Assembly: GCF_017599305.1 (NCBI RefSeq)
Contig: NZ_JAGFWR010000031.1
Location: 1-64,000, forward strand
Origin: Micromonospora antibiotica
Lineage (GTDB): Bacteria; Actinomycetota; Actinomycetes; Mycobacteriales; Micromonosporaceae
Reading direction: 5' to 3'
Length of the DNA stretch: 64,000 nucleotides
Shown: piece by piece, positions 50,463-51,796 of the stretch
How positions within the stretch are numbered: the first letter of the stretch is position 1
Layout: each line of letters begins with the position of its first letter
Translations under genes and position numbers: made by a program
The notes under the pieces: model-generated
What the model was told of the DNA's origin: nothing
Seen by the model: the letters and a program-made list of their open reading frames with translations, nothing else
Database searches by the model: none

Positions 50463-51416
50463 TCAGGAGTGCGGGCAGGTGTCCCGGTACTCCTGGATCG
50501 CGCTGCCCCGGGGCGCCGGGCAGAGGAACTGCTCGTAGCGGGTGTCGTCGTCGACGAACCGCTTCAGCCAGGAGATGCTGTACTTCGCCACGGTGACGTT
50601 GGGCGAGGTCGGCGCGGAGTGACCGGCCGCGTTCAACTCCAGGTACGCCTTGTCCAGGCTCGCCGGCAGGCTGGTGTAGAACGGCTCCGAGTGCGAGGCC
50701 ACCGGGGCGGTCGAGTCGTTCTCCGCGCCGATCACCAGCGTCGGCACCCGCACCGACGACCAGTTCTTGACCGTGTGCCAGCCGGTGAGCGGGATGGCGG
50801 CCTGCAACGCGGGCCGGGTGTTCGCCGCCGACAGGCTGCCGCCGCCGCCCATCGAGTGCCCCATCACCGCGAGCCGGGTGCGGTCGATCCGGGTCCGCAC
50901 CGCGCTGCTGCCGGTCAGGTAGTCCAACGCGGCGAGCAGCTGGGTGCCCCGGGAGGCCGGCTGGTCGTACACGGAGAGGGTGTCGATGGTGATCACCACG
51001 AAGCCCTGCGAGGCCAGCCGGGGGCCGAGCCAGGCGACGCTGGACTGGCTGGCGGTGTAACCGGGGGAGATCGCCACCGCGCCGAAGGTGCCCTCGGCGG
51101 TGCTGGTCGGGTAGTAGATCGTGCCACCCCGGAACCCGCTCACGGCGGACGCCGCGACGGTGCTCTGGGCGATGGCGAACGGGCCCCGGGTGGCCTCGAT
51201 GCTGGCCGTCGTCGGGGCGGGGCCCCGCTCGTAGGGGCTGGCGGCGACCGCTGCGACCGTCCGGCCGTCGGCGGGTGCGGCGGTCGCGGCGGGTGCGGCG
51301 ACCGCGCTGCCGCCGACCAGGGCGAGCGCGAGCAGCGGGCGGGTGACCAGTCGGGGCCAGGGCCGACGGGACGGGGGCCGGGTGGGGTGGGGGTGGAGGG
51401 CGGGCACGGGTTGCAC
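50463..51416 (-). CDS. Secreted cutinase/PET-hydrolase-like polyester hydrolase
   Basis: A 317-residue exported alpha/beta hydrolase. A signal peptide of about 47 residues is followed by a mature part that resembles Thermobifida cutinases and Ideonella PETase from memory: YERGPAP at 62, [16 protein letters not shown] (oxyanion Tyr120), the nucleophile elbow GHSMGGGG with Ser188, Trp213 in the substrate cleft (GWH), acid Asp234 in GAENDSTAP, catalytic His266 (AGHSAP) and a C-terminal disulphide Cys299-Cys314. All catalytic residues are present. GTG 51416 has AGGAG 5 nt upstream; the longer open frame would add 45 residues without a ribosome binding site. Confidence 0.93.
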
Positions 51417-51796
51417 GGGGGCTCCTGCGGGTGGGCGGACCGGAATCGATCGAAAACGTCCGATCGGTACGGGCCATCCTCCGGGTCCCGGCACCGAGAC
51501 CGGCAATCCCGGCCGGGTCATGTCAGACGGAATATGGGGCGCACGCCACACCCGTGCCGGTCGTGTCGTCCCGGCCCGATCGGGTGCCGAACCGGCAGGA
51601 TGGGACCGGTTCGACCCGACTCGTCGCCACCGCGGGGCCGCTGGAACACTGGAGTGACAGATGGGATCGGCACCCCGCAGGCTCGCGGGGCGTCGGCTCC
51701 GCTAACGTGAATGGCAGCGGAGTCGGGAGCCTGTCGTCACGATCGTCCACCCGACCCGGAAGCTCTGGTCTCTCTTACCGCCTGGGGGCGTTGGGA
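51417..51796. promoter_or_regulatory. Divergent intergenic region, hydrolase / membrane protein
   Basis: A 380-bp gap without a gene. On the plus strand TAACGT (51703-51708) is a likely -10 box for the small membrane protein gene, giving a leader of about 80 nt. The hydrolase promoter must lie between about 51430 and 51560 but I cannot place it. Confidence 0.4.

What the first reader, a model, noticed from the sequence alone, without database searches (positions are those of the whole stretch)
50463..51416. Complete secreted enzyme of the cutinase/PET-hydrolase family
Ser188, Asp234, His266, oxyanion Tyr120 and Met189, cleft Trp213 and the C-terminal disulphide match the polyester hydrolase family. 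From memory, parts resemble Thermobifida cutinases ([16 protein letters not shown]) and others PETase ([13 protein letters not shown]). Such an enzyme in a Micromonospora-like organism is a natural candidate for plastic or cutin breakdown, with only one disulphide seen (PETase has two).
Basis: partly seen in the sequence, partly recalled or inferred. Interest (0 to 1): 0.75.

Follow-up and report, generated by a model that had tools for sequence, protein, structure and literature searches.

The report
Ordinary secreted polyester-cleaving enzyme gene
This soil-bacterium gene encodes a complete, probably secreted, ester-cutting enzyme of the same well-studied family as the known plastic (PET) and plant-cuticle hydrolases; it is a sound new member of that family, with one unusual active-site detail, rather than something new in kind.

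Summary
A 317-residue ORF lies on the MINUS strand (51416 to 50463, GTG start, AGGAG ribosome site). It has a hydrophobic N-terminus, Ser188/Asp234/His266, Tyr120, Met189, Trp213, and only two cysteines (299, 314). Pfam PETase PF12740 E=3e-117. Nearest solved relatives: PHL7 (about 73%), PET40 and S. exfoliatus lipase (71.5%). The AlphaFold model matches 1jfr, TM 0.93 over the target. It is a type I polyester hydrolase of Micromonospora, 97% identical to an M. wenchangensis protein. PET hydrolysis by a Micromonospora enzyme (Mipa-P) is already published, so novelty is low. Two points add interest. Subsite II is His187/Ser267/Thr270: that Ser is IsPETase-like, whereas a review gives type I enzymes as His/Phe (PHL7: Leu); His/Ser occurs in 57 of 120 proteins of a sample biased towards this one. 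And the genome has two PETase-domain paralogues fused to sugar-binding modules (ricin-type lectin; CBM2), one with a catalytic domain 91% identical to solved chain 9xv5. Native substrate (cutin/suberin-like polyester) and PET activity are inferred, not shown.

The parts
50463..51416 (-). CDS, 317 aa + TGA stop; PF12740 polyester hydrolase
51422..51426 (-). AGGAG ribosome-binding site, 5 bases before the GTG start
   Evidence: sequence; GGAG in the consensus line of the orthologue upstream alignment
51276..51416 (-). N-terminal secretion signal region (about residues 1-47; exact cleavage site not determined)
   Evidence: hydropathy; pLDDT under 50 in nearly all of residues 1-65
50472..51242 (-). 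Catalytic alpha/beta-hydrolase domain (residues 59-315)
   Evidence: phmmer to PHL7; model and Foldseek
50853..50855 (-). Ser188, nucleophile in GHSMGGGG
50715..50717 (-). Asp234, catalytic acid
50619..50621 (-). His266, catalytic base
50616..50618 (-). Ser267 (IsPETase Ser238 / LCC Phe243 / PHL7 Leu210 position), subsite II
50607..50609 (-). Thr270 (IsPETase Asn241 position)
50475..50522 (-). Cys299...Cys314, the single C-terminal disulphide (bond inferred from homologues)
51476..51506 (-). Promoter-like pair TTGCCG-N19-GAGGAT; 19 of 30 orthologue upstream regions fit a pattern made after looking, without a shuffle control
51447..51466 (-). Inverted repeat CGATCG-N8-CGATCG just downstream of the -10-like box; possible operator
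   Evidence: weak

Best explanation
A secreted type I (cutinase-like) polyester hydrolase. After export and signal removal, Ser188, activated by His266 and Asp234, attacks an exposed ester bond. The acyl-enzyme forms with the oxyanion held by the backbone of Tyr120 and Met189, and water then releases the acid. Tyr120/Trp213 clamp one side of the scissile bond; subsite II (His187, Ser267, Thr270) holds the neighbouring unit in an open, polar cleft. The most likely natural substrates are plant polyesters and their fragments (cutin, suberin, feruloyl or other esters in plant litter). BHET and perhaps amorphous PET would be side activities. Shown here: family, residues, fold by homology and model. 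Inferred from established knowledge of the family: secretion and chemistry. Inferred more loosely: the native substrate.
For: PF12740 E=3e-117. 71.5-73% identity to PHL7, PET40 and S. exfoliatus lipase chains. Elements of the published M5 PETase motif ([11 protein letters not shown], Trp, Asp, His, DxDxRYxxFxC) present. AlphaFold2 ten-residue blocks from 81 to 310 all average pLDDT 85 or more; Foldseek TM 0.93 over 1jfr. Orthologues at 71% identity or more in 34 of 151 Micromonospora genomes including its own, plus one partial match (my count of the list). DUF5130, the divergent neighbour, also lies near it in 6 of the 9 named Micromonospora loci of this type. Related Streptomyces LipA (BdeA) enzymes cleave BHET, and one of three variants roughened PET film (PMC11169514). 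A plant-polymer role is supported by two same-genome paralogues with a ricin-type lectin domain and a CBM2 cellulose-binding domain.
Against: I found no activity data for this protein or for any member of its Ser267/Thr270 clade. The protein itself has no binding module, so the plant-wall inference comes from paralogues. Its neighbours (AsnC-type regulator, tryptophan dioxygenase, DUF5130, aminopeptidase N) say nothing about polyesters. The NCBIfam BHET-hydrolase equivalog score is just below cut-off. The Streptomyces relatives were weak: growing strains did not visibly damage PET film and all positive-control enzymes were more active on BHET (PMC11169514). Four of the five AlphaFold models were less confident than the one kept (mean pLDDT 76.4 down to 52.6).
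Confidence: 0.8

Rival explanations
1. A general extracellular lipase/esterase acting on soluble or emulsified short-chain esters and triglycerides, with polyester cleavage only incidental, as the old 'lipase' name of its relatives suggests.
For: The nearest relatives include S. exfoliatus lipase. LipA-type relatives clear tributyrin and act more on BHET than on PET (PMC11169514).
Against: The authors of that paper argue that the lipase annotation does not fit the observed activity. The protein aligns without a gap to PHL7, so it has no extra lid-like insertion relative to it. Same-genome paralogues carry polysaccharide-binding modules.
Confidence: 0.3
2. A recently adapted PET-degrading enzyme of IsPETase type (plastic as the natural substrate).
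For: Ser267 matches IsPETase Ser238, a residue that distinguishes IsPETase from type I cutinases.
Against: Trp159 and Ser214 of IsPETase are His187 and His242 here; the second disulphide is absent; identity 51%. The same Ser/Thr pair is shared by a wide actinobacterial clade, which points away from recent adaptation. No Tannase-family (MHETase-type) gene was found, but that search rang in none of its 14 control genomes and is inconclusive.
Confidence: 0.04

Closest known systems
PHL7 / PES-H1 (compost metagenome polyester hydrolase; PDB 7nei, 7cuv)
   Same: 72.7% identity over 256 positions to chain 9qva, a PHL7 entry deposited as a mutant; same triad, Gln152 (PHL7 Gln95), one C-terminal cysteine pair, His at the IsPETase-159 and -214 positions
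   Different: PHL7 Leu210 is Ser267 here, Leu93 is Tyr150, Phe63 is Tyr120; the PHL7 Asn at the Thr270 position is lost
PET40 (Amycolatopsis, PDB 8a2c), Streptomyces exfoliatus lipase (1jfr) and Streptomyces LipA/BdeA
   Same: 71.5% identity to both solved chains; actinobacterial relatives; NCBIfam BdeA model scores 510.2 bits
   Different: Below the BdeA cut-off of 520 bits; 1jfr and PET40 have Phe/Asn where this has Ser267/Thr270; the LipA sequences of PMC11169514 were not compared
IsPETase (Piscinibacter/Ideonella sakaiensis, type IIb)
   Same: Same triad; Ser at position 238; Gln119 and Trp185 positions match
   Different: 51.2% identity; Trp159 is His187, Ser214 is His242, no Cys203-Cys239 pair
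C3-cluster PET hydrolases (PDB 9xv6, 9xv7; 9xv5 and 9xv8 deposited as 'Lipase') and Mipa-P of Micromonospora pattaloongensis
   Same: Same family; same genus for Mipa-P
   Different: 9xv5 is 49% identical to the window protein but 91% to the paralogue at G000:C1:51932 onward.

Membership tests
PF12740 PETase / bacterial polyester hydrolases | Profile score above Pfam gathering cut-off | tested here: met
   391.1 bits against 28
PF12740 PETase / bacterial polyester hydrolases | Ser-Asp-His triad, GxSMGGGG, [PG]G[YF] and DxDxRYxxFxC (elements of motif M5 as described in PMC12224614) | tested here: met
   the published spacing rules were not seen. PMC13234336 (passage) notes PET-active enzymes without M5
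PF12740 PETase / bacterial polyester hydrolases | alpha/beta-hydrolase fold like solved members | tested here: met
   AlphaFold2 model, Foldseek to 1jfr E=1.1e-42, TM 0.93 over the target and 0.77 over the whole query
PF12740 PETase / bacterial polyester hydrolases | Hydrolysis of polyester or BHET | not testable with these tools
   needs purified enzyme
Type I PET hydrolases (Joo/Kawai scheme) | Single disulphide | tested here: met
   only two cysteines, 299 and 314, at the homologous positions; the bond itself is inferred
Type I PET hydrolases (Joo/Kawai scheme) | No extended beta8-alpha6 loop | tested here: met
   aligns without a gap to PHL7, a type I enzyme, over residues 59-315
Type I PET hydrolases (Joo/Kawai scheme) | Subsite II His164/Phe243 (LCC numbering; PHL7 has Leu) | tested here: not met
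   His is kept (His187) but Phe is Ser267. Type I by disulphide and loop, not by this residue
Type IIb (IsPETase-like) | Trp159/Ser238 pair and second disulphide | tested here: not met
   Ser only; His187, no second cysteine pair
NCBIfam NF051441 BdeA (BHET hydrolase) equivalog | Score at or above 520 bits | tested here: not met
   510.2 bits, 2% short
CE5-type cutinases (PF01083) | PF01083 match | tested here: not met
   no PF01083; none found in the genome either, in a search that rang in 1 of 14 control genomes

The most novel reading that the evidence does not exclude
The window enzyme represents a widespread actinobacterial branch of polyester hydrolases, without a close solved structure (best about 73%) or an activity that I found, in which type I scaffolds several times acquired an IsPETase-like open subsite II: Ser at position 238 coupled to Thr at 241, with His kept at 159 and 214. 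It works beside CBM-tethered sister enzymes in one genome as a natural division of labour on plant polyesters. If so, the branch is a natural experiment on the His/Ser cleft that engineers have approached by mutation.
Probability: 0.25. Interest if true: 0.5.

Novelty: new member of a known kind. Interest (0 to 1): 0.27.

Why it matters
It adds an intact-looking polyester hydrolase from Micromonospora, from a branch whose nearest solved structures are only about 73% identical. If the repeated change to Ser/Thr alters substrate choice, this branch would let the IsPETase Ser238 effect be tested on a natural type I background. The genome context (three family members, two with polysaccharide-binding modules) argues that plant material, not plastic, is what these enzymes are for.

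Tried and rejected
Considered and rejected: CE5 cutinase (no PF01083 hit). IsPETase-type enzyme. Sub1 of S. scabies as a close relative: its paper describes a protein like fungal cutinases with two disulphides (PMC7104285, first of five parts read).

Locus conservation is one-sided and partial: of the 9 named Micromonospora loci of this type (L004-L011, L013), DUF5130 lies nearby in L004-L009 and PepN in L005-L009, while L010, L011 and L013 showed none of the four neighbours tested. The other side (tryptophan dioxygenase and AsnC-type regulator) was found only in L004; L005-L009 lack it within about 6 kb. So a long stay in the genus is likely, but not proven by synteny.

Led nowhere or weak: MHETase/Tannase search of the genome (control rang nowhere, so no conclusion). 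Operator search: GATCG-N4-CGATC at up to 2 mismatches in 17 of 30 orthologue upstream regions against a shuffle mean of 7.5, maximum 14 in 200; the pattern was chosen after viewing the alignment and the sequences are related, so suggestive only. Paper searches for natural PETase-CBM fusions: 0 papers, 0, and 117 holding three of four broad terms, of which I saw the top 12 titles and starts of abstracts, none on that subject. I do not claim that such fusions are unpublished.

Limits: the 120-row tree was a quick search (SH-aLRT only, 37 of 117 inner branches open; the 52-row clade that holds the window has support 84 and is drawn open). Rows came mostly from the 79 best named loci and 30 best genus loci for the window protein, so frequencies of the Ser/Thr pair are biased towards it. 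Before the tree I dropped 16 near-duplicate rows and L110 (in-frame stop). IsPETase and LCC sit on long branches and their place is unsafe.

Full report
WHAT IS THERE. The ORF runs 51416 to 50463 on the minus strand, GTG to TGA, 317 codons, with AGGAG five bases before the start. The N-terminus contains a hydrophobic run (about 21-45) and residues 1-65 are almost entirely under pLDDT 50 in the model, as expected of an export signal and linker; no signal predictor was available, and SRRPWPRL before the run is at best a loose twin-arginine motif (my reading). Residues 59-315 are the enzyme.

FAMILY. Pfam: PETase PF12740, 391.1 bits, 3e-117. NCBIfam: BHET hydrolase BdeA NF051441, 510.2 bits against a cut-off of 520. 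PDB sequences: PHL7 entries first (3.2e-124), with S. exfoliatus lipase 1jfr, PET40 and PES-H1 close behind (best 60 of 181 shown). Identities over the mature domain: PHL7 chain 9qva 72.7%, PET40 71.5%, 1jfr 71.5%, LCC 54.7%, IsPETase 51.2%. An AlphaFold2 model from 26 aligned sequences (best of five, mean pLDDT 79.2; the others 76.4 to 52.6) finds 1jfr first in the PDB (E 1.1e-42, TM 0.93 over the target).

CATALYTIC PARTS. In IsPETase numbering (the recalled IsPETase and LCC rows matched PDB chains exactly): Tyr87 = Tyr120, Trp159 = His187, Ser160 = Ser188, Met161 = Met189, Trp185 = Trp213, Asp206 = Asp234, Ser214 = His242, His237 = His266, Ser238 = Ser267, Asn241 = Thr270, Cys273/Cys289 = Cys299/Cys314. 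The Cys203/Cys239 pair is absent. The M5 elements listed in PMC12224614 (passages read) are present. An ordered expression for three of them matched 123 of 129 locus proteins (one search prints 124 of 130, but its list also counted the LCC reference), so this pattern does not single the window protein out.

THE ONE ODD DETAIL. The Kawai review (PMC11219463, passages read) gives type I enzymes as His164/Phe243 (PHL7: Leu) and type IIb as Trp with Ser/Thr. The window protein has His/Ser. In the 120-row set, pairs at positions 238/241 were Ser/Thr 55, Phe/Asn 28, Phe/Gln 14, others 23; His159 with Ser238 in 57 of 120, and IsPETase alone had Trp/Ser. On a tree built without columns 238-242, the fewest changes between Ser and any other residue at 238 are 5. 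The 52-row group that holds the window (support 84, drawn open) contains Micromonospora, Actinoplanes and relatives, Dactylosporangium, Kibdelosporangium and a few others; one member, L119, has Ala. Other rows with Ser are three Streptomyces (L064, L069, L081) inside the LipA group, a Kribbella/Streptomyces pair (L047, L029; place unresolved), L074 and IsPETase. Engineering data at this position are mixed: PHL7 L210T is given as 1.04, 0.48 and 1.42 times wild type in three studies, and N213I (which I place at the Thr270 position by alignment) came up in a screen for larger BHET halos (PMC12371127, passages). So an effect of Ser267/Thr270 is plausible and undemonstrated.

GENOME AND RELATIVES. 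The nearest named relative is M. wenchangensis (97%; 98.8% over the mature domain). In a draw of 151 Micromonospora genomes including the window's own, 123 have some match at E<=1e-3 (some of these weak); by my count of the listing, 34 have a window-type orthologue (71% identity or more) and one more a partial match; one of the 34 (L110) carries an in-frame TAG. A second type at about 60-69% identity is common, and a third at about 48-56% (list truncated). Of the 9 named Micromonospora loci of the window type, DUF5130 is nearby in 6 and PepN in 5; the other flank is shared by L004 only. Neighbours in the window: AsnC-type regulator, tryptophan 2,3-dioxygenase (convergent), DUF5130 (divergent), aminopeptidase N; none suggests a polyester pathway.

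PARALOGUES. The same genome has two further PF12740 genes: L002 (C1:51932 onward, 479 aa read) is a PETase domain, a Thr/Pro linker and a ricin-type beta-trefoil lectin (PF00652 E=2.8e-29); L003 (C1, minus strand, from 23562 down past 22654, 465 aa read) is a PETase domain, a long Pro/Thr linker and CBM_2 (8.1e-24). L003 has GHSAGG where the window protein and L002 have GHSMGG. Seven of nine other third-type proteins scanned (L124-L130) also carry the lectin; L122 and L123, a separate subgroup, do not. The L002 catalytic domain is 91.0% identical to 9xv5, deposited as 'Lipase'; the neighbouring codes 9xv6 and 9xv7 are named 'C3 cluster PET hydrolase'. I saw no activity data for 9xv5 itself, but another C3 enzyme (C3 N1377) made BHET halos (PMC12283258, passages), so L002 may have at least as good a case for a PET test as the window gene.

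PRIOR KNOWLEDGE. Mipa-P, a PET hydrolase from Micromonospora pattaloongensis, is cited in PMC11219463 (passage). PMC12283258 (passages) reports BHET halos with cell-free Mipa-P, none on PET plates with cell-free enzymes, and activity on PET-containing plates with purified Mipa-P. Putative Micromonospora PETases from mangrove soil, two of them lacking the M5 motif, are in PMC13234336 (section 14 and passages). PMC12224614 lists Actinoplanes among bacteria encoding M5 variants (passage). PMC11169514 (outline with abstract, two of three parts of the Results, Discussion) shows BHET cleavage by related Streptomyces LipA enzymes and proposes that PET is a side activity.

VERDICT. A real, complete-looking type I polyester hydrolase with orthologues across its genus: new member of a known kind, with a subsite II that the review's scheme does not list. 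Family and chemistry are near certain by homology; plant polyester as native substrate is my best inference; PET activity is possible and untested.

Noticed in passing
L002:1501-2938 (G000:C1, start 51932, + strand): Same-genome paralogue: PETase domain + Thr/Pro linker + ricin-type lectin domain; catalytic domain 91% identical to PDB 9xv5. A natural PETase/binding-module fusion, also in L124-L130.
   Followed up: partly
L003 (G000:C1, minus strand, from 23562 down past 22654): Second same-genome paralogue: PETase domain + Pro/Thr-rich linker + CBM_2 cellulose-binding domain, with GHSAGG replacing GHSMGG. A 91% relative of its catalytic part is in G012; 45 of 61 genomes of the family have some match at E<=1e-3; their C-termini were not checked.
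   Followed up: partly
L119 (G006:C1:1273399-1274307): Divergent relative at 71% identity with several active-site changes in IsPETase numbering: Met161 to Leu, Thr88 to Lys, Ser238 to Ala, Gln119 to Pro; possibly a changed function.
   Followed up: no
L110 (G091:C2:582058-582963): Orthologue with one in-frame TAG in the segment around the oxyanion residue: a decaying gene or a sequencing error.
   Followed up: no
L046 and L052 (records titled Rhodococcus rhodnii NRRL B-16535): Both genes group with Kibdelosporangium sequences in the tree: gene transfer or, perhaps more likely, a mislabelled assembly. L029 (Streptomyces sp. SID13031) likewise pairs with Kribbella L047.
   Followed up: no
window 51447-51509, minus strand: Upstream region partly conserved across orthologues: promoter-like TTGCCG-N19-GAGGAT and an inverted repeat just after it; possible regulated promoter.
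   Followed up: partly
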